Below are positions 1 through 39,777 of a DNA stretch of 39,777 bases, in pieces. The stretch is from positions 1-39,777 of IMG/VR virus record IMGVR_UViG_3300039449_000036; one strand, written 5' to 3'. Each line of letters starts with the position of its first letter. Position 1 is the first letter of the stretch. This DNA is from a virus. The notes beneath the pieces were generated by a model, which was not told the DNA's origin, made no database searches, and worked only from the letters and a program-made list of their open reading frames with translations. The position numbers and the translations under genes are program-made.

Positions 1-1755
1 TTAGTACCCGTCCGGTGTGGTTACTGTCCAGCCACGTCCGCGCAGGGCGTCCACGGCGGTCTGTGCTGCTCCGGTTGTTGTCGAGGCACCTCCTGTGATG
101 TCGAGGACGCCGCTGCTTGTTCCTGCCGCTTCGATAGCTGTCACAAGGTCTGTGTAGGATTGCTGGTTTAGATTTGTGTTGGTGAACGCGTTGGCGTATT
201 TGGTGCATGGGCTATCGCTAAACGGAGAGCCAGTCCCGCCGAAAACGTCAAGCACCGATAAACTAGGGCAGTTAGCGGCGAATAAATCAAAGTCATTAAC
301 TCCAGCAGTATCCCAGTTAGAAACGTCGAGCGCCGTTAACCCGGAACAACTTTGTACGAATGCCCTGAAACTGTTAACTCCAGCAGTATCCCAGTTAGAA
401 ACGTCGAGTACCGCTAAATTGGTGCAGCCTTGTGCGAATGAAATAAAGTCATTAACTCCAGCAGTATCCCAGTTAGAAACGTCGAGTACCGCTAAATTGG
501 TGCAGCCTTGTGCGAATGAAATAAAGTCATTAACTCCAGCAGTATCCCAGTTAGAAACGTCGAGTACCGCTAAATTGGTGCAGTTAGTGACGAATGCCCT
601 GAAACTGTTAACGCTTGATGTATCCCAATTAGAAACGTCAAGCACCGATAAACTAGGGCAGTTAGCGGCGAATGTATTGAAACTGGTAACGCTTGAGGTA
701 TCCCATCTGCTGGCGTCTAGCGCGACTAAATCGGTTCTACTTCTGAACCAGTCCCGCATCACAGTGACCCCCGAAAAACCCCGTGCCGGGCAACGCTGCC
801 CGACCCACTCAACCAACCCATCGACTTCGCGCGAGACCATGCTCCGATTTACTATAACCGTGTGAATATCCGAACCCGGCCCCGCATAGTTCGGGTCGGT
901 CGGTATTTGATACGGGCCTGCCGTTACGTCAATCTCACCGACGATCACGCCCAGCGCCGTGCCCTGCACAAACGTACCGGACCAGCCACCAGCAGGGACA
1001 TCAATGAGCATCGAATCATCTGTGTCATCCAGCACAAGAGCCTGAACGCCACCAACGGTCTGCACGGTGGGCTTAGCAGCAGTGGTGGCTTGTGTCTGGT
1101 CGTTGCCGTTACCAGATTTGTCGATACGGAGTCCGCAGGGGTCGCCCGGCCCGGCCGGCGTAGTGCCGGCGCTCTCTTGAAACAGTGTCGAACCATCGGT
1201 CGAGTCTCCCCAGAAACCATCAGTGCCGTCTGCGAACAGAAGATCCGGAGAAAAATAGGTGGAAAAAGCCCCGCTAGATTTTGCCGCCGCGCCTTCGTCT
1301 GTCCAGGCATACGGGTAATAGGTGAGATCCTGAACTTTCGCCAGGCCGCCATTGGAAAGAAAACCTGGCTCTGCAGCTGAAAAAGGGTCGACAGTGAAAA
1401 GCACCTCTCCATCTGCCCAGCACTTGCCGACCCCATTGCTATAAACAAAAACCAGCGTGCCAGAGCCTTCCATGAATTCACCAAACCCAGAGCCCGGAAT
1501 CGGCTTGGATTTGTCCAGATCGGCCTTAATCACCCAAGTGCCTGAGCTGGAATTGAAGTTTGGAATATCGTTGATGGCTGCGGTTTCTGACAGGCTGGCG
1601 TCAAGCATCAAGCCCTCGCCAACTCCTTCGCTATAATTGAACCGAGGAACATCGGTGCCAGCTGTCTGGGTGTCACCATTGACGTCCTCGTAATCAGCAG
1701 GATCAGGGCGCGAAAAAGTGAACGCAACATTGAACGGGACGGTTTTAAGCGCCAT
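1..1755 (-). CDS. Tail protein with BspA-like (DUF285) leucine-rich repeats
   Basis: 584 aa, likely a distal tail fibre or tail-tip component that contacts the host surface. The first 320 residues are an unfamiliar, probably virion-attachment part. Residues about 330-520 carry seven or so 26-residue repeats with core LDVSNWDT, the BspA/DUF285 leucine-rich repeat signature known from surface adhesins and some phage tails. The repeat is also a 78-bp DNA repeat (bases about 230-720), with one unit duplicated exactly. The C-terminal 60 residues leave the repeat pattern. The ATG overlaps the stop of the upstream tail gene in a TAATG junction, so the two are translationally coupled. It is the last gene of the late operon in this window. 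The repeat family is clear; the receptor-binding role is inferred. Confidence 0.85.
   Translation of the reverse strand: MALKTVPFNVAFTFSRPDPADYEDVNGDTQTAGTDVPRFNYSEGVGEGLMLDASLSETAAINDIPNFNSSSGTWVIKADLDKSKPIPGSGFGEFMEGSGTLVFVYSNGVGKCWADGEVLFTVDPFSAAEPGFLSNGGLAKVQDLTYYPYAWTDEGAAAKSSGAFSTYFSPDLLFADGTDGFWGDSTDGSTLFQESAGTTPAGPGDPCGLRIDKSGNGNDQTQATTAAKPTVQTVGGVQALVLDDTDDSMLIDVPAGGWSGTFVQGTALGVIVGEIDVTAGPYQIPTDPNYAGPGSDIHTVIVNRSMVSREVDGLVEWVGQRCPARGFSGVTVMRDWFRSRTDLVALDASRWDTSSVTSFNTFAANCPSLSVLDVSNWDTSSVNSFRAFVTNCTNLAVLDVSNWDTAGVNDFISFAQGCTNLAVLDVSNWDTAGVNDFISFAQGCTNLAVLDVSNWDTAGVNSFRAFVQSCSGLTALDVSNWDTAGVNDFDLFAANCPSLSVLDVFGGTGSPFSDSPCTKYANAFTNTNLNQQSYTDLVTAIEAAGTSSGVLDITGGASTTTGAAQTAVDALRGRGWTVTTPDGY
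230..720 (-). repeat. Tandem 78-bp repeats encoding 26-aa LRR units
   Basis: The sequence GTATCCCA or a close variant recurs at 308, 386, 464, 542, 620 and 698, exactly 78 bp apart. The units around 386-463 and 464-541 are identical, indicating a recent duplication; the outer ones have drifted. Because 78 is a multiple of three, gain or loss of a unit leaves the reading frame of the tail gene intact. Confidence 0.95.
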
Positions 1756-2387
1756 TACACATCCTCCTGGGCATAGGACTGGGCTACAAAGTCAGCGTAA
1801 AAGGTGGTGCCGAGCAGATCAGGGTGCAGGGACTGGATCAGAGCAATAATTCTGGACTCGCCCCCGGTGAAAGCATCAATGGCCGTCTGCAGGGCCGTGC
1901 TATTTGGGTATTCGCCCTGCTCTACGCCCGTGCCGGTTTGATTCTGGTACAGCTTCAGGGTGCCGCTATCGGACACCCAGAAGTATTCGGTGTCACTGGT
2001 GGCAGACTCCCCGGCGGCAATGCTGGGATAGATCGTTGCGCCAGTTCCGGCCACGCCGCCAAGCTGGCCCAGCAGCCCCTGCAGTTTTCGCATCGCCCGG
2101 GTAAAGATAGCGGCGGTCTCGATGTCCCCCTGAGCCATTTCTGGGATGCCATCGCTGGTGAAGTCACGCTGAACAGCATAGGCACCTGTCTTGCCAGTGC
2201 CGCCGTATGGCGCGGTCAGGGTTAGCTGGGTGTCACTGTCCACCGTGGATACGTCATAGACCAGGCTCACGCCCGCCATGACGAAGCTGTCACCGGCCTG
2301 AACATTGGCCAGCCATTGCGTCCCAGATCCAGACACAACTGGACTACCGTTCACCACCGTGGCGGTGCCCGCTTTATATTGAGCCAT
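1755..2387 (-). CDS. Tail-tip / tail fibre attachment protein
   Basis: 210 aa. Residues 1-75 are a glycine/threonine-rich beta domain (GTATVVNGSPVVSGSGTQWL and a following DTQLTLTAPYGG) of a type seen at the start of many siphophage distal tail proteins. A short helical middle (MRKLQGLLGQLGG) follows, then another beta part. It probably links the tail tip to the LRR protein encoded next. The start has a GGAG about 7 nt upstream, and 12 bp separate it from the large tail protein gene. Function is inferred from position and composition; no catalytic motif is visible. Confidence 0.7.
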   Translation of the reverse strand: MAQYKAGTATVVNGSPVVSGSGTQWLANVQAGDSFVMAGVSLVYDVSTVDSDTQLTLTAPYGGTGKTGAYAVQRDFTSDGIPEMAQGDIETAAIFTRAMRKLQGLLGQLGGVAGTGATIYPSIAAGESATSDTEYFWVSDSGTLKLYQNQTGTGVEQGEYPNSTALQTAIDAFTGGESRIIALIQSLHPDLLGTTFYADFVAQSYAQEDV

Positions 2388-2399
2388 TGGGTACTCCGG

Positions 2400-5300
2400 T
2401 TATTCCTGCATGAAATAGAAATCGCTGAGGTGGGCTTCCGCCTCCATTACCCGGTTACCTGTGGTCACAAGAGAAACCTTAAGGGCATCCCCGGGGCTGA
2501 AGTCGTTTATTGTGTAAGTGCTGGTCAGAGAGAAGGTTTCATCACCCTTCGGCGTACTTATCGTGACCTCATCATTTTCCAGATCAACAAAGCACTCAAC
2601 CCCATAGAACTGCCCCAGCGCCGGGGCAATAACAGCAGCTGGCGGAGCAGTGCCGGTTTCCGTTGTAATAACCCTGGTTTCCGTTGTTACCCCTTGGCGG
2701 AACCTGACACGGTAAGTGGTCGTGAATTCTCTGTCGCTTCCTGATCCCGCATAAGACCAATCGCTCTCCACTTCATATTGCGCCTGGCAGAAGTTGGCTC
2801 CGCTGTCTCTACAGGAAAACAGCTTCATATTCATAATGGTGTTTACATTGTCGCCGGAGCTATATGAGCCGTTTGCAGCATGTCCGAACGAGAAACCCAC
2901 CTTCATTCTGAAGTTAGAGCTGGCCTCTGCCTGGTCAATGATGTACTGGGGAACATAGTGATAAAAATCGACCTTATCGCCATTTCCTGCCGTCTCAAGC
3001 CAAAGGGAATACCTGCCTCTATTTAAAGCTGCACTACCCCCGCCAACCACGCTGAAATTGTCATCAGGCACAAATGCTGTGAGGAAGTTATCGTGAACAT
3101 AGAGCTTCCTGCCGTTGTAGGAATCCACGCCTATTAGTGTGGTTTCCCGGCCAGCAGTAAAATCAGTCCCGTCAAACTTCAGGTATTTCTGATCGCCGTC
3201 ACCAAAGTAGAAGGTTCCATCGTTTTCGATGAATGCTCGCCAGTTGGTGCCATCGTAATACCCCAGATGGGTGGCAGTGAGGTTAAGGCCTGCAGTCGGT
3301 GTATCTCCAAGCCGTGACGGTATGTTTTGCAGGTTGCTGGACCAGTCAGCGCCGGCGGTGGCTGTATCCACCCAGGACGTACCGTTCCAGCGCTTCATTA
3401 CCTTGGTGGTGTCGTTGTACCAGAGGTCGCCCTCTCCTTCGGCAGTAGGTGCGCTTGTGGAAAAGAAGGTGGTGACCTTGCCGTTAGCAGTGGCCTGAGC
3501 ATTTGATGCATCAGACAGAGCCTGAGAAATACCTGAATCCTGAGCATCAACCCAGGATGAACCGTCGAATCGGTAAGGGTGATTGCCGTCATCGGTATCA
3601 AACCATAGGTCACCTTCGCTCATACCACTGGCAGGCTGGGTGGTTTGATAAAATGACTGTATCTTGCCGTCAGCTGTTGATTGGGCAGATGCAGCATCAG
3701 AAAGCGCCTGTGACGCATCCGATGCCGCCTGGTTTAACTGCGAGTATTCACTGCCGCTTATGTCGTTAAGCGAGCCTGGCTTGTCGGTGAGGTTTGCATA
3801 ACCGCTACCGCCGGTGATTGTCACTGCGCCAGAGAAAGCCGCACTACCGTCGCTGTAGACCGCAAACAATGTGACCCCATCGTACTGATAGGTGATCATC
3901 CCGGTTTTACTGTCCGCAGACTTCGGGCCAAGGGTGGCCACCGCATCGCCTACGACGCTTTCAACCTGTCCCGCAACGCTGATCTTCTCCGTGGCGGCAA
4001 GTGTGCCGGTGACGATCTTTGAGGCCGTCAGCTTCACGATCTTGGTGCCTTCGATGGCGTTATCTTCCAGATTCGCATCGATAAAGGCTTTGTCGGCGTC
4101 GGTAACCGTAGCCCAGGGGCTCAAGCCTTCGACCTCGCCGGCCGCAAGGCTCGGAGTGGTGACGCTGAATTCCTGGCTCATGGTGCCCTGTCCGAAGGCG
4201 TCATAGGTCGCGAACCGCAGGAAGTATTCCGTGTTATCTGCCAGGCCAGCTATGACCACAGGCCCGCCATAGGCTTGCGCCACCTGGTTAGCCGGGCCGG
4301 GAGTGAAGCCTGTGGACTGGCTCAACCATACCCGGGTGTCCTTGTAGTCCAGATCCGCCGGCGCGTCATAGTCGATCTGCAGGGACCGGAAACTGGCGGA
4401 CACAGTGATAGCGTCGGGCAATTCTGGCGCCACGTTCTCCACGGCTAATTTCGCGGCCTGTGTGCTCAGTTGGTTCTGCCGCCCCCGGCAGTACACGCGG
4501 CACTCAAACGCACGCCACGCGCCAGCCTGACCCAGCTCCCGGGCATAGTCTTCGGCATTCTTCTCGTAGGTGTAGACAAAAGCGGGATCAACCACCCACT
4601 CCGTGCGCACCAGGGAGCCATCCGCCCAGACTTCCACCTGGTAATCCTTGAAGTACAGATCCAGTGACCCGCGAGAGGCGCCCAGCTGGCCCTCACTGCC
4701 CATTTCCAGCCACTCGGTAACGCTGGTCTTGCGCCACACGAACTTGGCGTCACGGCCACCAAAAACGGCATCGTTGCCCTGCTCGAACAACTCAAGGCCG
4801 TGGACGTTCGGAACCTCCACCACATCATCCACATCCTCATCACCCGGCTCGGCATTCTGGATCTTGGTGGTGGTGATCTCTTGGATCGGCGCATCAGGCA
4901 CGATATTGCCGGACAGGGATACACCACGCGCCCGGATCTCGTAGCTCTTCCCGTCGCTGGGCACCACAAAGCCCACTTCAGGGGAGGCCGGGCCAACCTC
5001 GAACCACCCCTGGTCGCCCTTCTCCCGGTACTCAATGACGGCGTATTTGTAGCTGCTGACGCCGGGCGGCTGGACTGCCACCTCAATGGTAGAAAGGTTG
5101 GCGTTGGCGCTACGTGGGGTGTTGGTAAGCTCGGCCACGGTCACGGAAACCGGGTTTTCTGTCTCTTCCGGAATGTCAGGGGTAACAGCGATGGTGCCGG
5201 TAAGTTGATGGATTACATAGGCTGACTGCCAGACGTTCAGCGGGGTGGGCTGCGGGCTATAAAGAGGTGAAACAATCTCGTTGCTGGAACCCTCATAGAA

Positions 5301-7949
5301 TGAGTAGACGCCAGGGAGAGTAGCCCCCAGAAAGCCGAGGCCGTTGCCGCCACGAGTGCCCTGAAAGCCGGGCACTTCAGATTCACCATAAAAAGCGTGA
5401 AAATTAGATTCAGTCAGGTCACCAGGGATGGCGGTCTCACCATCCATGACAAAATAAAGAGCACCGGGCCCGCCCGGTGCCCCAGTGCCAGGGTAAGCCC
5501 TCGACCAGCTGTTTGCCTGATAGTAATCAGGGGGCACTTCCGCATCGCCACCAGATAGATCAATCAGGCCGTTTTCACCAATGGCAAAGCCTCGACAAAT
5601 GATAGCGAGGCCGGCGCCGGAGTTTCCGCCATCAGAGCCAGGCCCCAGATATGTCAACTCCGCTCCAGGCTGAAGCTGAACAGATGGCAGCTTGCCAAGA
5701 CCGCCGCCGCCATGCCCACTCCCGCCCCAGAGATAGGCGGGCAGCCCCCTCAGTTTTCCGTCCGATACATCAAGGCCGGAACGTGCAGCGCTTACTACCA
5801 GGCCGCCAACCGGCTCCAAATCATAAAAGGAATCTGTGAAATCAAAATCCAATATCTGAATGTATGGGTTGGGGGTGTAGGAACGATAAAACCAGCGGTA
5901 ATTCTCAAAGTTGCTTGCCTGCTGAATGACGCCATCAGACTGGGGCATGGATTCAGCTCGAAGATAACCAGCAAGGCCCTTGTTGTCAGAGTCCCACTTG
6001 AAATAGCGAGCCTCATAGACAGGGTCTGTGGTCAGCTCATCGACGCCCGCGCCACCTGGCTGCCCATTTCCTCGGCCATCCAGGGTGCCGTTGTTCTGGA
6101 AGTAGCCGGCAACGCGGAGCTGCACGTTCTTGGTGAGCGTGACGGTCACATCCCCGTCGATGGTTAAATCCTCCGGGCACCAATAGATGGCAGTTTCATC
6201 AGCAATTGAAGCATGCCCGGCCAGCGTGATGTCTGCCGTAATTCTCCTCTCACCGGCCTCTTCAAGCACCGCGCCAGGGAAGTTGGCCGCACTGATCTCG
6301 GTGCCTTCGCTCTGATACCAGCTCAGCGGCAATGCTGAACCAAACTGGTCCACCGGCAATTCGCTGGCCCGCTGACTGGAGCCAAACAGATCAACGGTGA
6401 CCTTGCCGGTTTGCCAATCCACCTTGACCTGCTGAACCTCGAAGTTCCGGCTCAGGGTCACGTCCACCTGGTCGGTGCTGTAATCCTTAACACAATCCAG
6501 ATTGACCCGGACAATATCGCCGACTTCCAGATCATTGTTCTCAGGGGAAAGCTCAAGGGACGTGCGCAGCGGGGGGCCAGCATAGCGATCCCGCAGGCTG
6601 TCCAGGATGTTCTTGATGGTGGTATAGGTGTGCCGCTCGGCAGAAAGGCCCCGGAATTCAATCTCCAGAGTTTCGGACTGCCCGTTGCGCTCGATAGAGC
6701 CGGAATCAAGCAGACGGTTCACCCGGGTAAAGGCTTCTTTGCGCTGGTTCCAGTTCCAAAACACCAGGATGTCGTTGATCATCCCGCCCATGTCGTGGTT
6801 CAGGGTCGGGGCGCTCAGCACATTGCTTTCATTCAGCTCCCGCGAATAGCCGCTTTGGGAGGGAATCAGGGTCATGCGGCGCAGGCCGAGCTGACCATCC
6901 GAATAGATGGGTGGGTAGCACCCCATGAGCCGGAAAACCTGCTCTTCTACGAACTTCTTACCGCTCTCCTTCTCAACGCCGGACAAAAGGACGGACAGGC
7001 CCTCATCAAAATCATCCAGATCCCAAAGATCGGCGCCAATGTTTAAGTATTCCGATGTGCGGATGAACTCAGGGCCCACGCCCATGTGCCAGTGATCTGG
7101 CAGGTATTCGCCCGGGTATCCGTAAATTGAGCCGGTCAGCAGCGCGTAGGCCAGCATCGGCGCCGGCATGTCCAGGTAGACGTATTCGGTCACCTTGGGC
7201 GCATTGTCGCGCTTTTCGTCTGGGTCCACCTCAATGGTCAGCGGTGTGGTGCCCAGGACGCCACGTGTCACCTGCCTCAGCGTATTGGTGCTTTCATCAA
7301 CCTCCTCGGCCATGGCGATTTCAAAGGCGTCATTCTCGCCTTCAAGTCGCACCAGGCAGATGCTTTTCCCGCTGGCCAGCGTCCGCCCGGAAGGGCTCAC
7401 AGGCTGCTTGACCAGCTTCAGGCCATTGACGGAGTACACCTCAATCTCCGTGTCATCCGCAGCCAGGGAGGCGCTGAGCGTGGTCTCCTTCAGAACAAAT
7501 ATGTCATCACGCATCTGGCGCTGAATATCAGCGCACTTGAAGGTGTATTCCTGCTCTTTGTAAGAGGCGCCCTGAATCAGCTGGGTTTGCACCAGGGTGA
7601 ATGAGGACCAGGACAGCCCAGCAAAGCCCGCGTAATACCGAACCCGCTTGTTCCGCAGACCCTTATCGTCGTTCAACTTGGCCTGCTGCAGCTCGGTCAG
7701 ACCCTCATCCGCAATTCGGATGGTCATGGAGCCAATCTTGCTGTTGGCCTTGTCCGGGTCCAGCTTCTGGCTGGTGCTGTCCACCCGGGTCAGCACGCCA
7801 TCGGTCACATTGGCGCCAGAAAGCCCTTCTATCGGGTGGCTGGTGAAGTAGTGGTAATCCTCGCCGCCAAAATCGAACTCAATAACAAAGCGCGGCTCTC
7901 GGACAGCTTGAGCGTTAAGGGAGCCAAAGGCGCTGTTATGCGTTCTCAT
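2400..7949 (-). CDS. Central tail-tip host-specificity protein (gpJ-like)
   Basis: 1849 aa, the largest protein here. Residues 1-550 look like the hub of a siphophage baseplate. Residues about 560-880 are glycine-rich with many GG and GxG turns (GGSGHGGGGLGK and similar), which resembles a polyglycine or beta-helix receptor-binding domain inserted in the protein. Fibronectin type III-like domains follow at about 940-1040 and 1170-1270, then two related repeats (GDLWFDTDDG... and GDLWYNDTTK...) at about 1430-1530 of a kind common in phage fibre proteins. A C-terminal beta-rich domain completes it. The gene overlaps the upstream tail gene by 14 bp. By position after the tape measure and by architecture it should fill the role of lambda J, fixing host range and starting DNA entry. 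Confidence 0.85.
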   Translation of the reverse strand: MRTHNSAFGSLNAQAVREPRFVIEFDFGGEDYHYFTSHPIEGLSGANVTDGVLTRVDSTSQKLDPDKANSKIGSMTIRIADEGLTELQQAKLNDDKGLRNKRVRYYAGFAGLSWSSFTLVQTQLIQGASYKEQEYTFKCADIQRQMRDDIFVLKETTLSASLAADDTEIEVYSVNGLKLVKQPVSPSGRTLASGKSICLVRLEGENDAFEIAMAEEVDESTNTLRQVTRGVLGTTPLTIEVDPDEKRDNAPKVTEYVYLDMPAPMLAYALLTGSIYGYPGEYLPDHWHMGVGPEFIRTSEYLNIGADLWDLDDFDEGLSVLLSGVEKESGKKFVEEQVFRLMGCYPPIYSDGQLGLRRMTLIPSQSGYSRELNESNVLSAPTLNHDMGGMINDILVFWNWNQRKEAFTRVNRLLDSGSIERNGQSETLEIEFRGLSAERHTYTTIKNILDSLRDRYAGPPLRTSLELSPENNDLEVGDIVRVNLDCVKDYSTDQVDVTLSRNFEVQQVKVDWQTGKVTVDLFGSSQRASELPVDQFGSALPLSWYQSEGTEISAANFPGAVLEEAGERRITADITLAGHASIADETAIYWCPEDLTIDGDVTVTLTKNVQLRVAGYFQNNGTLDGRGNGQPGGAGVDELTTDPVYEARYFKWDSDNKGLAGYLRAESMPQSDGVIQQASNFENYRWFYRSYTPNPYIQILDFDFTDSFYDLEPVGGLVVSAARSGLDVSDGKLRGLPAYLWGGSGHGGGGLGKLPSVQLQPGAELTYLGPGSDGGNSGAGLAIICRGFAIGENGLIDLSGGDAEVPPDYYQANSWSRAYPGTGAPGGPGALYFVMDGETAIPGDLTESNFHAFYGESEVPGFQGTRGGNGLGFLGATLPGVYSFYEGSSNEIVSPLYSPQPTPLNVWQSAYVIHQLTGTIAVTPDIPEETENPVSVTVAELTNTPRSANANLSTIEVAVQPPGVSSYKYAVIEYREKGDQGWFEVGPASPEVGFVVPSDGKSYEIRARGVSLSGNIVPDAPIQEITTTKIQNAEPGDEDVDDVVEVPNVHGLELFEQGNDAVFGGRDAKFVWRKTSVTEWLEMGSEGQLGASRGSLDLYFKDYQVEVWADGSLVRTEWVVDPAFVYTYEKNAEDYARELGQAGAWRAFECRVYCRGRQNQLSTQAAKLAVENVAPELPDAITVSASFRSLQIDYDAPADLDYKDTRVWLSQSTGFTPGPANQVAQAYGGPVVIAGLADNTEYFLRFATYDAFGQGTMSQEFSVTTPSLAAGEVEGLSPWATVTDADKAFIDANLEDNAIEGTKIVKLTASKIVTGTLAATEKISVAGQVESVVGDAVATLGPKSADSKTGMITYQYDGVTLFAVYSDGSAAFSGAVTITGGSGYANLTDKPGSLNDISGSEYSQLNQAASDASQALSDAASAQSTADGKIQSFYQTTQPASGMSEGDLWFDTDDGNHPYRFDGSSWVDAQDSGISQALSDASNAQATANGKVTTFFSTSAPTAEGEGDLWYNDTTKVMKRWNGTSWVDTATAGADWSSNLQNIPSRLGDTPTAGLNLTATHLGYYDGTNWRAFIENDGTFYFGDGDQKYLKFDGTDFTAGRETTLIGVDSYNGRKLYVHDNFLTAFVPDDNFSVVGGGSAALNRGRYSLWLETAGNGDKVDFYHYVPQYIIDQAEASSNFRMKVGFSFGHAANGSYSSGDNVNTIMNMKLFSCRDSGANFCQAQYEVESDWSYAGSGSDREFTTTYRVRFRQGVTTETRVITTETGTAPPAAVIAPALGQFYGVECFVDLENDEVTISTPKGDETFSLTSTYTINDFSPGDALKVSLVTTGNRVMEAEAHLSDFYFMQE

Positions 7950-8403: not shown

Positions 8404-8826
8404 TTACTGCTTCCTAAAGTAATCCTCGCAATGCGGCGCGGCCAACCTTAGCGATTCATCTCTAACGAAATCCGATGCGTGATCTTCATCGCCCAGCGGC
8501 GTCACAGTAATTCCCTTGGCTGATTTATCCACCATGGCGTATGAGCCGTCAGAAAAATAAAGCCTTCCCTGGCTGTATTTCGCCTTACCAACCGCGTCGC
8601 GATGATTCCACGAGTGACAGGTATCAACATAACCATCCGCCGCGATATGCATCGTCATAACGTATGGCCCTAGCCCGCCCGTCCATGTCCCTACAGCATA
8701 GTCAGGCGCGGGCTCCGCTGTGGCGTGGACGTACTGATTGGAATCCATCGGGCCCCAGCCAGGGGCGCATGACGCAAATACAGGGGCAAATAGGACTATC
8801 CAGTATTTACTGGTAAACCGAGTCAT
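8404..8826 (-). CDS. Small predicted lipoprotein (moron)
   Basis: 140 aa. The N-terminus has a positive residue, a hydrophobic stretch and a lipobox FASC, so it should be lipidated at Cys19 and anchored in the outer or inner membrane. The mature part (GTWTGGLGPYVMTMHIAADGYVDTC...) is a small beta-rich domain with three further Cys. It overlaps the upstream lipoprotein gene by 20 bp and is followed by a terminator, so the two form a separate cassette inside the tail operon. Cargo of this kind often alters the lysogen's envelope or blocks superinfection, as Cor and Llp lipoproteins do. That role is an inference, and no named family is assigned. Confidence 0.7.
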   Translation of the reverse strand: MTRFTSKYWIVLFAPVFASCAPGWGPMDSNQYVHATAEPAPDYAVGTWTGGLGPYVMTMHIAADGYVDTCHSWNHRDAVGKAKYSQGRLYFSDGSYAMVDKSAKGITVTPLGDEDHASDFVRDESLRLAAPHCEDYFRKQ

Positions 8827-9387: not shown

Positions 9388-9416
9388 ATGGTATCGCGGT
9401 TTTAGCTGCCGGCCAA
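9388..9416 (-). promoter_or_regulatory. Putative promoter for the lipoprotein cassette
   Basis: On the minus strand TTGGCC, a 17-base spacer and TACCAT lie 24 bases before the first lipoprotein ATG, within the 3' end of the tape measure gene. Both hexamers match the sigma-70 consensus at four of six positions. Together with the terminator at 8362-8385 it would make the two lipoprotein genes an autonomous unit. Confidence 0.4.
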
Positions 9417-12350
9417 TTCTCGGCCTTGGCGGCTGGATCGGTTGATGAGGACATAATCAAGGTCGTTAATCCTCTCCCCCAACTTCCCAACAAGGGTTTC
9501 GGTAAGGCTTTCTTCATCCAGCCCAGTGACTGGGCCCTGAAAATTGATGGTTACACCGCTTCCACCTGCTCCGCCATCCAGCTGGACCGGAGCCGGAGCA
9601 GCAGGAACGGTCTGCACCCCGCCTGAAATCCCACCGCCCCCACCGCCGCCAGCCGAACCGCCCCCGCCAAATTGGGCTGACTTGATCGCCTGTAGGCGGG
9701 CACCGCCTGCTACGATAGCAGCCGCCGCTGCTGCCGCACCCAAAGCGGGGCCGACGAAAGGAATCCCAGACATAGAGTCGTATGCTTTTTGCGCTGATGC
9801 CGGGATGCTGACCAGTGTCTGGGCAATTGCGGCGGCTTTGCCGATCTCAAACATTTTCCGGTTTTCACTGGACATCAGCCCAGTGATTTCGGATAACCCG
9901 GACGCCGCCAGACTTGCCTGCGCAATCCACCGGGCTCGATCCATGCCCTCCATTGCGTCGTTAAAGCGTTTATTCTCTGCCTCTACTGCGGCGTTCCATC
10001 GCGCCTCGTTATCAAACTGCTCCTCTCGGGCGCCATTTAGTATTTCCAGATTTCTTTCATGATGAAGCCTTAGCAGCTCCTCTTCGGTCATGTACTGCTC
10101 AAGCAGCTGTTCCCCACGGTCTATCTTCTTCTGCCGCTCTGCCTCCATTTCGGCGATAATCTCTGCCGCCGCCCGGCGCGATTCCAAGTTTCGCTCTATG
10201 GCGTCCTTCTCGGCCTCATGGGCATCAATAGTGGCGTAAGCCTGCTCGGCAGCACGGATCTGGCTTTGTGTGGCGCCATCGACAGCCAGCTTGTAGAGGT
10301 CCGCCTGGGTGGCGGTCATGCCCAGGGTTTGGGCTTCAAGGTTCAGGGCGTCGATGCGCTTCTGGATGGCGTCGGTGTTGCCAGAGTTGCTGCCACCGCC
10401 AGAGGGCTTATCTTCCGGCTTATCGCCTGCCCCGCTTCCACCACCTTCGGCGATCTCGAACAGCCGGGAGAATGTAGCCCGATAGTCCTCTGCTTTTTGC
10501 TGGACGGTATCCAGCTCTGCACGCAGCTCGATAAGCCGTTTCTTCCAGTTATCCGCACTTCGGTCTTCTGGGTTCCGATCAAGCAGCAACTGGTAACTTT
10601 GGATGCTGTTATACAGACGGATCGCTTCGTCTTGCAGATCCTCGAAGGGCTGCTCCAAGTCCATCAGCTTCTTCTGGGCCTGCGCTGATGTCAGTCGCTC
10701 GAAAGAGCCGGCCAGCTTGTCGATCTCGGAATCCAGATCAACGGCTTTCTCGCTTGCCTCATCAGCACTGGTGGCAAAGTAGCCCAGCGCCAGGACAGCG
10801 GTTGTCACCACCCCTACGGGACCACCCAGGAGGCCCATGGCACCAGATGCTGCCCGGGCGGCAACGCTGGCACGGCCTGATGCTACGGCTGCGGCATTGG
10901 ATGCTGCTGTATGGGCCGCCTGTGCGGATGAAGCCCTGGCCGTAGCCTTGGTGAGATTATCCATGGCGAAGGCATGGGCATTGGTCCCGGCCGTGGCCTT
11001 GGCATCCGCAAGGGCTCGCTGCTGGATGGTCCGGGAAGCAATCAGCTCTGCTTCAGTTCGGCGCGCGATCGCGGCCGTGGCTACGGCCTCAGCTTTCGCG
11101 TCCTCAATGGAAGCCAAAACTGAGCGGCCTTTGGCTGCCGCATAGGAAGCCACCGCCGCCGTGGCGCGCCCAGCTACCAGAACCGCCAGCCCCTCAATCA
11201 CGGCAGACAGCTGCTCTGTGCTCTCTTGAGCCTCACCCAGGGTGTCACCGTACCCAGACCACAAGCGCACCAGGTCGGTAGCTGTCTGTGTGGCTGAGCG
11301 CATCAGTCCTGCTTGAGAGTCGCCAATGCCAATCAGGGCAACGTCTACAGCACTGAAGAACGAATCAATATCACCCTGCAGGGTGTCCAACTGGGCCGCC
11401 GCAGTCTCTGCAGCTTGCCCTGTCGATTGCAGCCGCGATTCCATGTCGCGCAATGCGCTGGAGCCATTGCTCAGAAGAGCAGCAAGCGCGGGGCCTGCCT
11501 CTGCGCCGAACATGGCAACCGCACGGCTAGCCGTTACACCGCTGGCTTCAAGGTCAGCAATAATATCGACAAGGGGCCGGAATTCGCCCGCAGAATTGCG
11601 GACAGAGATGCCAAGATCATCAGCCTGATCCGGCAGCTCATTGAGGATGGCCCGTAGGCCGGTACCTGCACGCTCGCCATTACCGAATGCAGTGGTCAGC
11701 AAGCCAAGGGTGGCAGTAGTGCCCTCAAGGGACTGCCCCAATGCCGCCGCTGTCGGCCCAGCATTACGCATGGCGACCTGCAAACGATCTACGTTCAGGG
11801 CACTGGCGCCAATTGATGCAGTGTAAACATCAACAACGCGGCCGGAATCAGAAGCAGCCAGCTCGAACTGATTCAGGGTGGAGGTTACCAGCTCAGTGGC
11901 TCGCCCCAGCTCTGCCTGACCAGCTTCGGCCAGGCTCAAGACGTTATCCAGCGAGGCCATCTGTTCGGTGGCGCTCTGGCCACTGGATGCAAGTGCATAG
12001 AGGGCTTCGGTGGTTTGCGCGGGGTTGAATCTGGTGGAAGCAGCAGCTCTTAGCGCGGATTCGCTCAACTGATCAAGCTCTTCTGCCGTGGCGCTCGATA
12101 CAGCGCCCACGTTTTTCATGCCCTGCTCGAAGCTGGCTGTTCCCTGAAGGATGGAACGGAAAAACTGAGAAGTGGCGACCGTGGCCAGCGCGGCGCCAAG
12201 CAGCTTCAAGCCACCGGACATCTGATCAGTGGCGCGAGTTACCTTGCCTTCGGTCTGCTCAGCCTGACGACCCAGGCGATCAAGGTGGCGCTGCCCACCT
12301 TCAACTTGGGTGCTATCAACCGCCAGTACCAGTCTTGCCGTTTCGGTCAT
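9402..12350 (-). CDS. Tail tape measure protein
   Basis: 982 aa from the ATG at 12350 (MTETARLVLAVD); the longer frame from 12392 lies inside the chaperone gene. Residues about 80-340 match the TP901-type tape measure core (FEQGMKNVGAVSSATAEELDQL, and LVTSTLNQF). Alanine-rich helices and coiled coils follow, with hydrophobic stretches near GAMGLLGGPVGVVTTAVLALG and near GPALGAAAAAAAIVAGG that are typical for membrane insertion during DNA entry. The C-terminus is glycine-rich and then ends in a short domain. It sets tail length and is packed in the tube lumen. The start overlaps the frameshift product's end by 35 bp, the usual position after the G/GT chaperones. Confidence 0.93.
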   Translation of the reverse strand: MTETARLVLAVDSTQVEGGQRHLDRLGRQAEQTEGKVTRATDQMSGGLKLLGAALATVATSQFFRSILQGTASFEQGMKNVGAVSSATAEELDQLSESALRAAASTRFNPAQTTEALYALASSGQSATEQMASLDNVLSLAEAGQAELGRATELVTSTLNQFELAASDSGRVVDVYTASIGASALNVDRLQVAMRNAGPTAAALGQSLEGTTATLGLLTTAFGNGERAGTGLRAILNELPDQADDLGISVRNSAGEFRPLVDIIADLEASGVTASRAVAMFGAEAGPALAALLSNGSSALRDMESRLQSTGQAAETAAAQLDTLQGDIDSFFSAVDVALIGIGDSQAGLMRSATQTATDLVRLWSGYGDTLGEAQESTEQLSAVIEGLAVLVAGRATAAVASYAAAKGRSVLASIEDAKAEAVATAAIARRTEAELIASRTIQQRALADAKATAGTNAHAFAMDNLTKATARASSAQAAHTAASNAAAVASGRASVAARAASGAMGLLGGPVGVVTTAVLALGYFATSADEASEKAVDLDSEIDKLAGSFERLTSAQAQKKLMDLEQPFEDLQDEAIRLYNSIQSYQLLLDRNPEDRSADNWKKRLIELRAELDTVQQKAEDYRATFSRLFEIAEGGGSGAGDKPEDKPSGGGSNSGNTDAIQKRIDALNLEAQTLGMTATQADLYKLAVDGATQSQIRAAEQAYATIDAHEAEKDAIERNLESRRAAAEIIAEMEAERQKKIDRGEQLLEQYMTEEELLRLHHERNLEILNGAREEQFDNEARWNAAVEAENKRFNDAMEGMDRARWIAQASLAASGLSEITGLMSSENRKMFEIGKAAAIAQTLVSIPASAQKAYDSMSGIPFVGPALGAAAAAAAIVAGGARLQAIKSAQFGGGGSAGGGGGGGISGGVQTVPAAPAPVQLDGGAGGSGVTINFQGPVTGLDEESLTETLVGKLGERINDLDYVLINRSSRQGRELAGS

Positions 12351-13010
12351 GCCAGGCCTTCGCTCTGATTTGATCCAGACGGCGCAACACATCCACCTCC
12401 CAGGGTAGAAGGTGGATTTGCTTCAGTGCTGCCCAGTGATGGATCTCGGTGTAGGTGCAATCGCCCAGCTGACAGAACCACCCCCAGAGGTACTCCATAC
12501 CTTCCGGGGGCGACTCAATCTTCAGGCTCTTGGGTTTCTTGCCGGTTTGCTTCCAGACCTGTTCCAGTCGCTGGCGCTGGCTGGTACCGGTCTTGGCGTC
12601 GGGTAAATCGAGGTCTATTTGCCCTTCCGCCCAGTCGTAGAGTCGCTGGACGGTTTCGTGAAAAAACGGGCATCGTTGGAGGCGTAGCGGTCGATCATGT
12701 CCCGCAGCTGGGGCGCCTCACGCAGAAGCTTCTGGACGTTTTCGGGGGTGCACTCCTCTTCAAAGGACCAGTCACCCACCAGGGCGGCGGTCAGGATCAC
12801 TGTGCGATCCTCTGCTTTCACCTCGCCCTGGCCGGCAATAGCTGCCAGATCGGCCCGATAGGCCTCGGCCTTGGCTTTCTGGAAGCTGTCCGACCATTGA
12901 GACCGGATCACCAGATAGTGTTCGGTCTTTTCCCCTTCCGGGGTGCGCAAGGGCACCTTGATGCCCTCGTTCGCCTTATCCCGGGTGAAAAACGCATCCA
13001 TCCCTACCAT
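12316..13010 (-). CDS. Tail assembly chaperone, -1 frameshift product (gpGT-like)
   Basis: The frame of the downstream 60-codon open stretch (12316-12498, ending in HLLPWEVDVLRRLDQIRAKAW...) stays open upstream through and beyond the chaperone's stop codon. A slip at T TTT TTC (12660-12666) after residue 117 would continue as HETVQRLYDWAEGQ and give a 231-residue fusion. This is the well known tail chaperone arrangement of long-tailed phages. The extension is rich in charged and aromatic residues and ends inside the tape measure start. The open frame and slippery heptamer are seen; frameshifting itself is inferred. Confidence 0.8.
12615..13010 (-). CDS. Tail assembly chaperone (gpG-like)
   Basis: 131 aa, acidic and mostly helical, encoded between the major tail protein and the tape measure as expected for the protein that coats the tape measure before the tube polymerises. 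The start ATG overlaps the stop of the major tail gene (TAATG) and has AAGGTG upstream. The last 14 residues lie after the slippery site and are replaced by a longer extension in the frameshift product. Family assignment rests on position, size and the frameshift pattern rather than on a diagnostic motif. Confidence 0.82.
   Translation of the reverse strand: MVGMDAFFTRDKANEGIKVPLRTPEGEKTEHYLVIRSQWSDSFQKAKAEAYRADLAAIAGQGEVKAEDRTVILTAALVGDWSFEEECTPENVQKLLREAPQLRDMIDRYASNDARFFTKPSSDSTTGRKGK
12660..12666 (-). other. Slippery heptamer T TTT TTC for -1 frameshifting
   Basis: On the minus strand the chaperone codons CGT TTT TTC present T TTT TTC in the zero frame, fitting the X XXY YYZ rule. Slipping back one base allows both tRNAs to re-pair and opens the frame leading to the gpGT-like extension. 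The zero-frame stop lies 42 bases further on. Confidence 0.75.
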
Positions 13011-33410: not shown

Positions 33411-33619
33411 GATACGGAAACATTGTTCTCGGTTCCGCCGTTGCGATGGCTCTACTCGCCATCCTTTGCATGGCCGGGGAAATGGACTACCAGGACGCAC
33501 TGATAAGCGAGCAGCACACCTGCGCCATGGTGCGCGATGGAATCTGGCCCGCAGAGCAGGCCGCAAACATTAACTGCGCCGATCCGGTGCAAGTGGCAAT
33601 TCACGAACGACAGCGCTGA
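33407..33619 (+). CDS. Small membrane-anchored protein
   Basis: 70 aa. The ATG overlaps the previous stop (ATGA) and has GGAGG 4 bases upstream. An N-terminal hydrophobic segment (GNIVLGSAVAMALLAILCMAG) anchors or exports it; the rest has two Cys (HTCAM and INCAD) and would be periplasmic. The arrangement suggests translation coupled with the gene before it. Function unknown. Confidence 0.6.
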   Translation: MRYGNIVLGSAVAMALLAILCMAGEMDYQDALISEQHTCAMVRDGIWPAEQAANINCADPVQVAIHERQR

Positions 33620-33671
33620 TCTGTTGTTTTGCGGGGTCCGCCCCGCCTTTTATTCGAGCAAGGAGCAGAGC

Positions 33672-34406
33672 ATGAGCAACGAACTGGCACAACAGCAGGA
33701 AACCCAGCTTGCACAGCCCACCAGCGAGTCTGCCCAGGTACTGGCAGTCATTGAGCGGGTGGCGGCAAACCCTGACGCCGACATCGACAAGCTGGAGCGC
33801 CTGCTGGATATGCAGGAACGGGTAATGAACCGCAACGCCATGCAGGCATTCAGCGCTGACATGGCGGCCATGCAGGCAGAGCTTCCCACCGTTGCCGAGA
33901 CAGCCAAAGGCCACAACAACGCCAAATATGCGCCGCTGGAGAAGATCAACGAGGTGATCCGCCCGGTGCTGCAAAAGTACGGCTTTGCGGTGACCTTCCG
34001 CACCGAGCAGCAGGACGGCGCAGTCTCCATTACGGCGGTGCTTTCCCACAAGCAGGGCCACCACCAGGAATCCACACTGGTTCTGCCCAACGACACCAGC
34101 GGCAACAAGAACCTGGTGCAGGCCATTGGCTCCACGGTGAGCTACGGCAAGCGCTATGCCTTGTGCGCCCTGCTGAACATCAGCACCGGTGACGATACAG
34201 ACGGAAGGCCACCACAACAGGCCGCCCCCAGCACCCTGACAGCCAAACAGGTAAAGCAACTGCGTGACGCTGCAAAGGTTGCCGGTGTTGATGATGCCTA
34301 CATTTGCGAGAAAGGCGGCGTGGCCGAGATTGAGGACATTCCGGCAGAGCGATTCACCGCAGCCCTGAATCATTTAAAGAAGTTGGCGCAAGGGGGTGGC
34401 AAGTGA
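33672..34406 (+). CDS. erf: ERF-family single-strand annealing protein
   Basis: 244 aa from the ATG at 33672 (AAGGAG upstream). Central ERF core: FSADMAAMQAELPTVAETAKGHNNAKYAPLEKINEVIRPVLQKYGFAVTF, read as successive motifs, then STVSYGKRYALCALLNISTGDD. Such proteins anneal complementary single strands during phage recombination and genome circularisation. A Gln/Pro-rich linker and a C-terminal helix-hairpin-like part (LTAKQVKQLRDAAKVAGV) may contact partners. It overlaps the nuclease gene by 4 bp. Confidence 0.92.
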   Translation: MSNELAQQQETQLAQPTSESAQVLAVIERVAANPDADIDKLERLLDMQERVMNRNAMQAFSADMAAMQAELPTVAETAKGHNNAKYAPLEKINEVIRPVLQKYGFAVTFRTEQQDGAVSITAVLSHKQGHHQESTLVLPNDTSGNKNLVQAIGSTVSYGKRYALCALLNISTGDDTDGRPPQQAAPSTLTAKQVKQLRDAAKVAGVDDAYICEKGGVAEIEDIPAERFTAALNHLKKLAQGGGK

Positions 34407-35200
34407 TCGTCATCGAATGCCAGCAGGGTTCGCTGGAATGGCATCAGGCCCGCGCCGGAGCCATCACGGCCAGCATGTTCACCGTTGCCCGGGAGAAGGT
34501 GGGCACCCTCAACGAACAACAGCAGAAATATGTGAACAGCGTTCTGGCCGGCATGGGCGAGAAGGAAGCGGCAGAGGCTGCCGGTTATCGCTCCGTGCCC
34601 CGCTCTGAGGGCGTCCAGAAGGCGCTGAAAGGTGAGCAAGTGGGCGATTACTCCAACGCCGCCAAAGACTACGCCTTTCGCCTTGCGGTTGAGCGTATCA
34701 GCGGTGAGCCGCTGGACGAAGGCTTTTCCACCTGGGCCATGCGCCGGGGTAACGAATTGGAGCCGGAAGCCCGCGCCGCTCACGAAGCCCGCATCGAAAT
34801 GCTCATTACGCCCACCGGTCTGGTGACCACTGATGACGGCCTGTTCGGTGCCAGCGCGGACGGCCTTATCAACGATGACGGCGGCAGCGAATACAAATGC
34901 CTGGTCGATCCTGCGCGCATCCGCTCAATCATCATCGACCGCGATCTGGAGCAGTTCACCGATCAGATACAGGGCTGCATGTGGCTGACCGGGCGCAAGT
35001 GGTGGCACCACGTCCTCTACTGCCCTGCCCTCAAGCCGGCAGGCAAGGAACTGATTATTCACCCCATGCAGCGGGATGACGATTACATCGAGGCGCTGGA
35101 GGCCGATTTGCTGGCCTTCAACGATCTGGTGGAGCAGTACAAGGCGCAGATTCTCGGCAGCGCCACGGGCATCGAAGAAGCTCGGCTGATGGTCGCCTAA
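34403..35200 (+). CDS. YqaJ-type viral exonuclease with HTH-like insert
   Basis: 265 aa, starting ATG in overlap with erf. YqaJ core: CQQGSLEWHQARAGAITASMF, MRRGNELEPEAR with Glu120, GASADG with Asp153, EYK with Glu163 and Lys165 (PD-(D/E)XK site). Residues about 36-84 (NEQQQKYVNSVLAGMGEKEAAEAAGYRS...) are an extra helical segment that resembles the helix-turn-helix of terminase small subunits. The enzyme would resect dsDNA ends and hand the 3' strand to ERF, like lambda Exo and Beta. Confidence 0.92.
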   Translation: MIVIECQQGSLEWHQARAGAITASMFTVAREKVGTLNEQQQKYVNSVLAGMGEKEAAEAAGYRSVPRSEGVQKALKGEQVGDYSNAAKDYAFRLAVERISGEPLDEGFSTWAMRRGNELEPEARAAHEARIEMLITPTGLVTTDDGLFGASADGLINDDGGSEYKCLVDPARIRSIIIDRDLEQFTDQIQGCMWLTGRKWWHHVLYCPALKPAGKELIIHPMQRDDDYIEALEADLLAFNDLVEQYKAQILGSATGIEEARLMVA

Positions 35201-38746: not shown

Positions 38747-39777
38747 TGGGTCGCGGTCGCAGCACAAGGCGGGATAACAGCCTGCCGGAGTACGTTTACC
38801 GGGTCGCAAGCAAGAACCGGGTTATCTGGCGTGAGTACGCAGGAAAAGGCCAGTTCTCAGGCCAGATAACGCTGGTTTCACCCAATGGCCGTCCCCTGCC
38901 CCATGACGCGCCGCACAGGGACATTCTGGAGGCCTACCAGCGGCAGGTGGCCACCGGCGGCAAGCGCACCCTTGGAAACCTGCTCAGGGACTACATGGCG
39001 GCGCCCAGGGTGGCGCCTATCAAGCCGAAGACCCGGGCGGAATACCTGAAGTACGTGGATGCGATTGCCGCCAAGCCAATGCGCAACGGATCTCGGTTCG
39101 GTGATGTGGCCCTGGAAAAGATTTCCGCCGGCGTGATCGCCAAGTACCGCGACAGCCTGGCCGACAAGCCGACCACGGCAAACAGGCACCTGCAGTTCCT
39201 CTCTGTGGCGTTTGGCTGGGCCATCGAGCAGGAACTGATGGCATCCAACCCGTGCCAGGGTGTGCGCCGGTACCGTCTGGAGGCTCGGACCCGCTATGTG
39301 GAAGACTGGGAGTTTGACCTGGTGCAGGGGCTGGCGCCGGACTATGTGGCCGTGATGATGGAGCTGGCATTTCTGATGCGGGCCCGGAAAGGGGAGATTC
39401 TGGCGCTACGCCGGGAGCATGTAACCGACCGGGGCATTTTTCTGGAGCGCAGCAAGAACAGCGAATCAGAGGTAACCTTGTGGACGCCGCGGCTTCGGGA
39501 TGCCTACAAGGCGGCCACAGCCATCAACCGGGGCGTTATCAGCCCGTGGCTGCTACACGGCAAGGATGGCGACGCTATCAAGCCTGAGGCCTTCTCCACT
39601 GCCTGGCAGCGGCTCATGGCCAAGGCATTGGAAAACGGCCTGAAAGAGCGGTTCACGTTCCACGATCTGAAGGCCAAGGGCCTGACGGATGATTCGGAGC
39701 ATTGGGCGGGGCATAAATCGGAGAGGATGCGGCAGGTTTACCACCGGCTGGCCCGGGAGAAGCAGGCAACCCGGTAG
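38746..39777 (+). CDS. int: Tyrosine-type integrase
   Basis: 343 aa. An N-terminal arm-binding part, a core-binding domain (residues about 75-165), then the catalytic domain with Arg214 (RKGE), Lys237, His306, Lys309 in HDLK where most relatives have HxxR, His323 (AGHKS) and Tyr332 as nucleophile. It starts in TGATG overlap with the DUF4224 gene and has no promoter of its own, so it is expressed from the PL-like operon. The stop is the last base of the window. Integrates and excises the prophage. Confidence 0.95.
   Translation: MGRGRSTRRDNSLPEYVYRVASKNRVIWREYAGKGQFSGQITLVSPNGRPLPHDAPHRDILEAYQRQVATGGKRTLGNLLRDYMAAPRVAPIKPKTRAEYLKYVDAIAAKPMRNGSRFGDVALEKISAGVIAKYRDSLADKPTTANRHLQFLSVAFGWAIEQELMASNPCQGVRRYRLEARTRYVEDWEFDLVQGLAPDYVAVMMELAFLMRARKGEILALRREHVTDRGIFLERSKNSESEVTLWTPRLRDAYKAATAINRGVISPWLLHGKDGDAIKPEAFSTAWQRLMAKALENGLKERFTFHDLKAKGLTDDSEHWAGHKSERMRQVYHRLAREKQATR

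What the first reader, a model, noticed from the sequence alone, without database searches (positions are those of the whole stretch)
230..720. Adhesin-like LRRs with an exact repeat duplication in a tail protein
BspA-type repeats are better known from bacterial and protozoan surface proteins. Here they make the end of a tail protein, and two 78-bp units are identical, implying recent unequal exchange. Copy number changes keep the frame, so this offers a way to vary host contact without a reverse transcriptase system.
Basis: partly seen in the sequence, partly recalled or inferred. Interest (0 to 1): 0.55.

Follow-up and report, generated by a model that had tools for sequence, protein, structure and literature searches.

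The report
Repeat-built tip on phage tail protein
A temperate bacterial virus carries a probable host-binding protein with a stack of near-identical leucine-rich repeats; related viruses carry different numbers and versions of these repeats on a conserved frame, so the stack looks like an evolvable docking surface, although nobody has shown that it binds anything.

Summary
On the minus strand, a 584-aa protein at the distal end of the tail gene cluster carries six 26-aa (78-nt) repeats (window 265-732). Units 3 and 4 are identical over 78/78 nt, inside a 132-nt exact match at lag 78. By sequence they are PARCEL/DUF285 repeats (TIGR02167, 6.2e-30), not Pfam's BspA-type LRR_5; the predicted fold is a leucine-rich-repeat solenoid, closest to solved BspA-like proteins. 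Three siblings share the frame and C-terminal cap but have about three units. In a distant homologous family, 28 distinct arrays hold 3-14 units, always whole 24-aa units. Among pairs with at least 88% flank-plus-cap identity, 23 of 33 differ in number; in the other 10, same-position units are hardly more alike than others. Variation falls on six codons per unit. No reverse transcriptase was found. Against fast switching: five groups of near-identical contigs have identical arrays. So copy number varies between lineages, and was not seen to vary within a population. Receptor binding is inferred. Tail-fibre domain duplication altering host range is already known (T4, OP1).

The parts
1..1755 (-). 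Gene of the 584-aa repeat protein (P0001), last gene of the tail cluster
   Evidence: ORF; start overlaps the stop of the upstream gene (TAATG) with AGGAGG upstream
1255..1755 (-). N-terminal region aa 1-167, shared with L003, L004, L005; presumed virion anchor
   Evidence: alignment A1; anchoring is inferred; pLDDT below 50
733..1254 (-). Beta-rich flank domain, aa 168-341
   Evidence: alignments A2, A4; models
253..732 (-). Array of six 26-aa PARCEL/DUF285 units (655-732, 577-654, 499-576, 421-498, 343-420, 265-342) plus the start of a seventh
421..576 (-). Two identical 78-nt units (units 4 and 3); exact lag-78 match of 132 nt covers 374-583
4..252 (-). Conserved C-terminal cap, aa 502-584
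   Evidence: alignments A1, A2; cap search
1755..2387 (-). Upstream gene, N-terminus matches tail-fibre families
   Evidence: phrog_1980 1.6e-14 and others
2400..7949 (-). 1849-aa protein, probably the central tail-tip protein (by size and position)
   Evidence: only families of unknown function matched; role inferred
9402..12392 (-). Tail tape measure protein
   Evidence: PF10145 1.6e-31; phrog_1533 3.5e-59
33537..34406 (+). Erf-like single-strand annealing protein, candidate agent of exchange between repeats
   Evidence: phrog_155 2.4e-53; PF04404 2.3e-26
34403..35200 (+). RecE-like exonuclease next to Erf
   Evidence: phrog_149 1.1e-30, phrog_434 4.4e-14

Best explanation
The protein is a probable receptor-binding (adhesin) subunit of a temperate, long-tailed phage. 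Its conserved N-terminus presumably attaches it to the tail tip. A beta-rich domain, an LRR solenoid of the PARCEL/DUF285 type and a conserved cap follow. Conserved L, W, F and C residues build the solenoid. A few positions per unit (window unit positions 1, 3, 19, 20, 23, 24, 26; six positions in the distant family) vary and presumably face outward to contact the host surface. Homologous exchange between 78-nt repeats adds or removes whole units without breaking the frame and shuffles variable patches between units. The phage's own Erf annealing protein and exonuclease could carry out that exchange. Over evolutionary time this, with point change at the exposed codons and perhaps swapping of whole arrays between phages, gives a rapidly evolving contact surface; it is not a fast within-population switch. 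Shown: the repeats, the duplication, unit-quantised copy-number differences, concentration of variation, no reverse transcriptase match. Inferred: virion location, anchoring, exposure of the variable residues, binding, the recombination route.
For: Identical units and shared blocks between distant units. Siblings with the same flank domain and cap but about 3 units against 6. Distant family: 28 distinct arrays, all whole numbers of units, 3-14; 23 of 33 close pairs differ in number, and in the 10 others positional orthology is nearly lost (0.741 against 0.720). Variation confined to positions 14, 16, 17, 20, 21, 23 of 24, at the same places as in the window. LRR solenoid in two models, best VIA matches BspA-like LRR proteins (Z 16.2, 3.0 A, 193 residues to 4h09). 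Position after tape measure, large tail protein and tail-fibre gene. Erf and exonuclease in the same phage. Conserved N-terminus with an exchanged C-terminus in L004.
Against: No binding or virion data. Near-identical contigs have identical arrays (5 groups, 14 contigs). Siblings number only three. The distant family has 24-aa units and only 29-36% identity over the module, and some of its genes lie near head, endolysin or terminase genes. Siblings lack Erf, and two have RecT instead. Foldseek gave no PDB match at E <= 0.001. Variable codons are about as variable as synonymous sites, which relaxed constraint would also give.
Confidence: 0.55

Rival explanations
1. Arrays are swapped whole between phages by homologous recombination in the conserved flank domain and cap; internal duplication is minor. 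The protein is still an adhesin, but its diversity comes from cassette exchange.
For: Flanks and caps stay about 90% identical while arrays differ throughout; modules sit behind different N-termini (L007) and in different gene neighbourhoods; L004 has a different C-terminus.
Against: The window has identical adjacent units and shared blocks inside one array; 5 pairs of units differing by at most 1 nt exist inside 3 of the 28 distant arrays; within-array identity (0.781) exceeds same-position between-array identity (0.721).
Confidence: 0.25
2. The array is a structural spacer or stalk: variable residues drift under weak constraint and unit number sets length only, with no role in recognition.
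For: Variable codons vary about as much as third positions of framework codons; no binding evidence exists; PARCEL proteins are often of unknown function (PMC2996958, section 6).
Against: Variation is confined to a few positions per unit at the same places in two clades, as on LRR binding faces; the array is near the C-terminus, usual for phage adhesins (recalled).
Confidence: 0.15
3. The identical units are an assembly artefact.
For: The window is a virus record of unknown read type, and exact tandem repeats are hard to assemble.
Against: Short-read assembly tends to collapse, not add, exact tandem units (recalled); the other units differ from each other and the frame stays open.
Confidence: 0.05

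Closest known systems
PARCEL / DUF285 (PF03382, TIGR02167) repeat proteins
   Same: Profile match well above cut-off; tandem units of 25-26 residues with conserved hydrophobic and variable polar positions; occasional identical units (PMC2996958).
   Different: Sits in a probable phage tail gene, not a lipoprotein or bacterial surface protein; dyad symmetry of the coding DNA not seen per unit; two models show an LRR solenoid, not the amphipathic helices predicted in 2010.
BspA-like / TpLRR cell-surface proteins (4h09, 4fs7, 6mlx)
   Same: Predicted LRR solenoid; best VIA matches.
   Different: Pfam LRR_5 not listed for this protein; sequence identity 12-14% in those matches.
Tail fibres varied by domain duplication (T4 adhesin; Xanthomonas phages OP1, Xp10, Xop411)
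   Same: In-frame duplication of small domains in a tail protein, reported there to change host range (PMC2248197, passages).
   Different: Other domains, not LRR; here no phenotype is known.
Phage proteins annotated as BspA family LRR surface protein or 26-residue repeat (BFVD), and PARCEL ORF 200 of Vibrio phage vB_VhaM_pir03 (PMC7765460)
   Same: Same repeat class in phages.
   Different: Neither a tail location nor copy-number change was described in the passages read.
Diversity-generating retroelement targets and lamprey variable lymphocyte receptors (recalled)
   Same: Works-like comparison only: diversity focused on exposed positions of a constant scaffold; modular LRR units of variable number in the receptors.
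   Different: No reverse transcriptase and no A-biased change here; no relationship to the receptors claimed.

Membership tests
PARCEL / TIGR02167 / DUF285 | Score above the curated cut-offs | tested here: met
   TIGR02167 102.5 bits (cut-off 30), PF03382 70.1 bits (cut-off 25). Siblings L003, L007 only weak (0.021, 0.028); L005 and the three 24-aa-unit proteins tested gave no TIGR02167 match
PARCEL / TIGR02167 / DUF285 | Tandem units of about 25 residues | tested here: met
   Six units of 26 residues; the canonical length in PMC2996958 is 25
PARCEL / TIGR02167 / DUF285 | Dyad symmetry of the coding DNA | tested here: inconclusive
   0 of 6 units above shuffles (lowest p 0.076), but a weak antisense match of the array to itself (28%, 2e-4); the motif method of the paper was not repeated
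BspA-type LRR | Match to Pfam LRR_5 | tested here: not met
   Not among the 10 families listed at E <= 1
BspA-type LRR | LRR solenoid fold like BspA-like proteins | tested here: met
   Predicted models only; VIA Z 16.2 (3.0 A, 193 residues) to 4h09, 16.1 to 4fs7, 15.3 to 6mlx; Foldseek alone not significant
Phage tail receptor-binding protein | Encoded in the tail gene cluster | tested here: met
   Next to a gene with a tail-fibre N-terminus and downstream of the tape measure gene
Phage tail receptor-binding protein | Conserved N-terminus with variable C-terminus | tested here: met
   Four-sequence alignment and L004
Phage tail receptor-binding protein | Present in the virion and binds the host | not testable with these tools
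   Needs proteomics and binding tests
Diversity-generating retroelement target | Reverse transcriptase in the same genome | tested here: not met
   PF00078 absent in the window and in 0 of 16 relatives' records found; the records may be incomplete

The most novel reading that the evidence does not exclude
A widespread phage adhesin cassette: an LRR array between a conserved flank domain and a conserved cap, diversified without a reverse transcriptase by turnover of whole units plus hypervariable exposed codons, so that arrays lose positional orthology while flanks are still about 90% identical. It would be a phage counterpart, in working principle only, of variable lymphocyte receptors, and the window's phage would be a member caught just after a unit duplication.
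Probability: 0.4. Interest if true: 0.7.

Novelty: new variant of a known kind. Interest (0 to 1): 0.48.

Why it matters
If the array is the docking surface, phages can remodel host contact with ordinary homologous recombination on modular repeats, without a retroelement. The conserved flank domain and cap make such arrays easy to find and count, so the link between unit number, unit sequence and host can be tested across metagenomes. It also places PARCEL/DUF285 repeats, often of unknown function, in a setting where a function is guessable.

Tried and rejected
Foreign origin of the array from base composition: the window array is 45.7% G+C against 56-57% in its flanks, but arrays of siblings L005 and L007 are low too (46.5%, 43.2%; L003 53.5%), so this is not evidence of import.

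PARCEL palindromy as the driver: the per-unit test was not above shuffles.

Retroelement: no RVT_1; no bias to A at the variable codons.

Erf as the specific cause: siblings lack Erf, and two of them (L003, L004) have RecT instead.

Relatives in named collections: phages gave 15 records and plasmids 50, none covering 80% of the protein. Butyrivibrio phages Arian and Bo-Finn have a DUF285-like hypothetical protein near terminase genes, not in a clear tail gene. P0001 matched 1 of 17 genomes of the sibling's genus and 2 of 390 of its order at 1e-15, one of the two over aa 173-284 only.

Foldseek against PDB: no match at E <= 0.001; only the VIA second look gave LRR proteins.

Counting choices: of 68 loci, L171 was not entered in the scripts; of the 67 entered, 30 lacked the flank motif in the same open frame (cut by contig ends or diverged) and were dropped; 37 remained, 28 distinct. 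L154 and L156 are two ends of one contig and were not counted as a near-identical group; L118 is cut at its 5' end and was left out of the L117/L119 group.

Literature: searches of the held library listed no paper on LRR or PARCEL arrays in phage tail proteins; the nearest was PMC7765460. This covers only that library and those terms.

Full report
What is there. The window is a virus record of 39,777 bases. It reads as a temperate long-tailed phage: terminase, portal, head, tail terminator, tape measure and tail genes on the minus strand, and repressor, Erf-like annealing protein, exonuclease and integrase on the plus strand. It starts exactly at the stop codon of the repeat gene and ends exactly at the stop codon of the integrase, as a trimmed prophage would. 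The repeat gene (1-1755, minus) starts inside the stop of a gene whose N-terminus matches tail-fibre families (TAATG, with AGGAGG upstream).

The repeats. Six 26-aa units cover aa 342-497. Units 3 and 4 are identical in all 78 bases; the exact match at lag 78 is 132 nt. Other unit pairs share 44 to 65 of 78 bases. A 41-nt block is shared exactly between places five units apart, and a 23-nt block between places three units apart. With the duplicate unit left out, identical codons are clustered in blocks (p = 0.0002 by codon-column permutation); conserved against variable segments may explain part of this. The order of variable patches (FNTFAANC, FRAFVTNC, FISFAQGC, FISFAQGC, FRAFVQSC, FDLFAANC) shows the same patches reused. 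This fits unequal exchange or conversion among units.

What family. The profiles say PARCEL/DUF285. Pfam's BspA-type LRR_5 was not listed, yet matching genes in plasmid records are named 'BspA family leucine-rich repeat surface protein'. A sequence search of solved structures finds F-box/LRR-repeat protein 2 (1.8e-8). Two AlphaFold models, of the whole protein (mean pLDDT 69.9, aa 1-167 below 50) and of the module (74.6, its first 61 residues below 50), give a solenoid with one short strand every 26 residues. Foldseek gave no PDB match at E <= 0.001, but VIA-align ranks LRR proteins first (Z 16.2, 3.0 A, 193 residues, to 4h09; Z 14.0, 3.2 A, 205 residues, to 6mlx with the whole model).

Close relatives. 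L003 (also found as L008 in Alcanivorax sp. DP30), L005 and L007 share the flank domain and cap but have 81-aa arrays, 3.12 units, against 160 aa, 6.15 units, in the window. L004 keeps aa 1-249 and then has another C-terminus. L007 has the module behind another N-terminus. As all three array-bearing siblings have about three units, an increase in the window's lineage is the simpler reading, with four sequences only. No closer relative was found: 1 of 17 genomes of the sibling's genus and 2 of 390 of its order gave a match.

A larger homologous family. A profile of the module found viral contigs with the same flank domain and a similar cap around 24-aa units of the form SFPLIDTSxGTxFxxAWxxCxSLT. 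A search with that cap gave 68 loci. I entered 67; 37 had a complete last module and 28 were distinct. Array lengths were exact multiples: 3 units in 2 arrays, 4 in 4, 5 in 9, 6 in 4, 7 in 2, 8 in 3, 9 in 1, 10 in 2 and 14 in 1. The 172 units give 167 distinct protein sequences. Positions 14, 16, 17, 20, 21 and 23 have entropies of 1.9 to 3.4 bits; W19 and C22 never vary and most others hardly vary, position 11 (1.4 bits) lying between. The window's own variable positions 19, 20, 23 and 24 lie at the same places between the conserved F and C. The variable codons vary at all three bases with no bias to A, and framework codons vary mainly at third positions. This speaks for long-term selection or relaxed constraint and against a retroelement; no reverse transcriptase was found in the window or in 16 relatives' records.

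Tempo. Of 33 pairs with at least 88% flank-plus-cap identity, 23 differ in unit number. In the 10 with equal number (mean flank identity 0.899), same-position units are 0.741 identical and off-position units 0.720, so positional orthology is nearly gone; variable codons are 0.428 and framework codons 0.845 identical. One pair, L107 and L116, keeps orthology (0.89 against 0.76). Against a fast switch: in five groups of near-identical contigs (L107-L111; L137, L032, L145; L117, L119; L028, L029; L162, L163) the arrays are the same. Assemblies give one consensus each, so rare variants would be missed.

Mechanism. Most likely the array is the contact surface of a tail adhesin, and exchange among repeats adds, removes and shuffles units in frame. 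Erf and a RecE-like exonuclease in the same phage could promote it. Siblings L003 and L004 have RecT instead and some records have neither by these searches, so the route is inferred. Whole-array swapping between phages is a serious rival and may act as well. The distant family also sits near tail sheath, head, endolysin and terminase genes, so a virion role other than the tail is possible there.

What is known. Duplication of small tail-fibre domains with host-range change is on record for T4 and OP1 (passages of PMC2248197; primary papers not read). PARCEL repeats were defined in PMC2996958 (section 6 read; passages), which also notes occasional identical blocks. A PARCEL protein in a phage was reported in PMC7765460 (passages). 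A library of predicted viral structures holds phage proteins already named as BspA-family LRR. New here, as far as the searches named under Tried and rejected reach, is the combination: PARCEL-type units in a probable tail adhesin, a fresh unit duplication, and comparative evidence for unit turnover and hypervariable codons on a fixed frame.

Verdict. Observation confirmed; interpretation partly supported. Interesting as a testable adhesin-diversification system; not a new kind of system.

Noticed in passing
L113, ORF ending with the cap at 4001-4246: One ORF carries two repeat arrays, each with its own flank domain and cap: the whole module is duplicated as well as its units.
   Followed up: no
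L081:5968-7260: A similar flank-domain start and a similar C-terminal cap enclose a different LRR type (LTGSIPSLSANTALTQFYCYSNL units), which suggests the frame can host other repeat classes.
   Followed up: no
L138, L154, L135, L022: The 24-aa-unit module lies near head genes (L138), tail sheath (L154), endolysin (L135) and terminase plus a tail-fibre gene (L022), so it is not tied to one virion position.
   Followed up: partly
window 8404-8826 (-): A J517_1871 family lipoprotein (NCBIfam 75.3 bits, cut-off 60) is encoded inside the tail cluster.
   Followed up: no
window 1-3 and 39775-39777: The record begins at the stop codon of the repeat gene and ends at the stop codon of the integrase, so it was cut at gene borders and attachment sites are missing.
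   Followed up: no
window 176-865 (+): An antisense frame is open through the whole array, and its translation weakly matches the repeats themselves (28%, 2e-4), a possible trace of PARCEL palindromy.
   Followed up: partly
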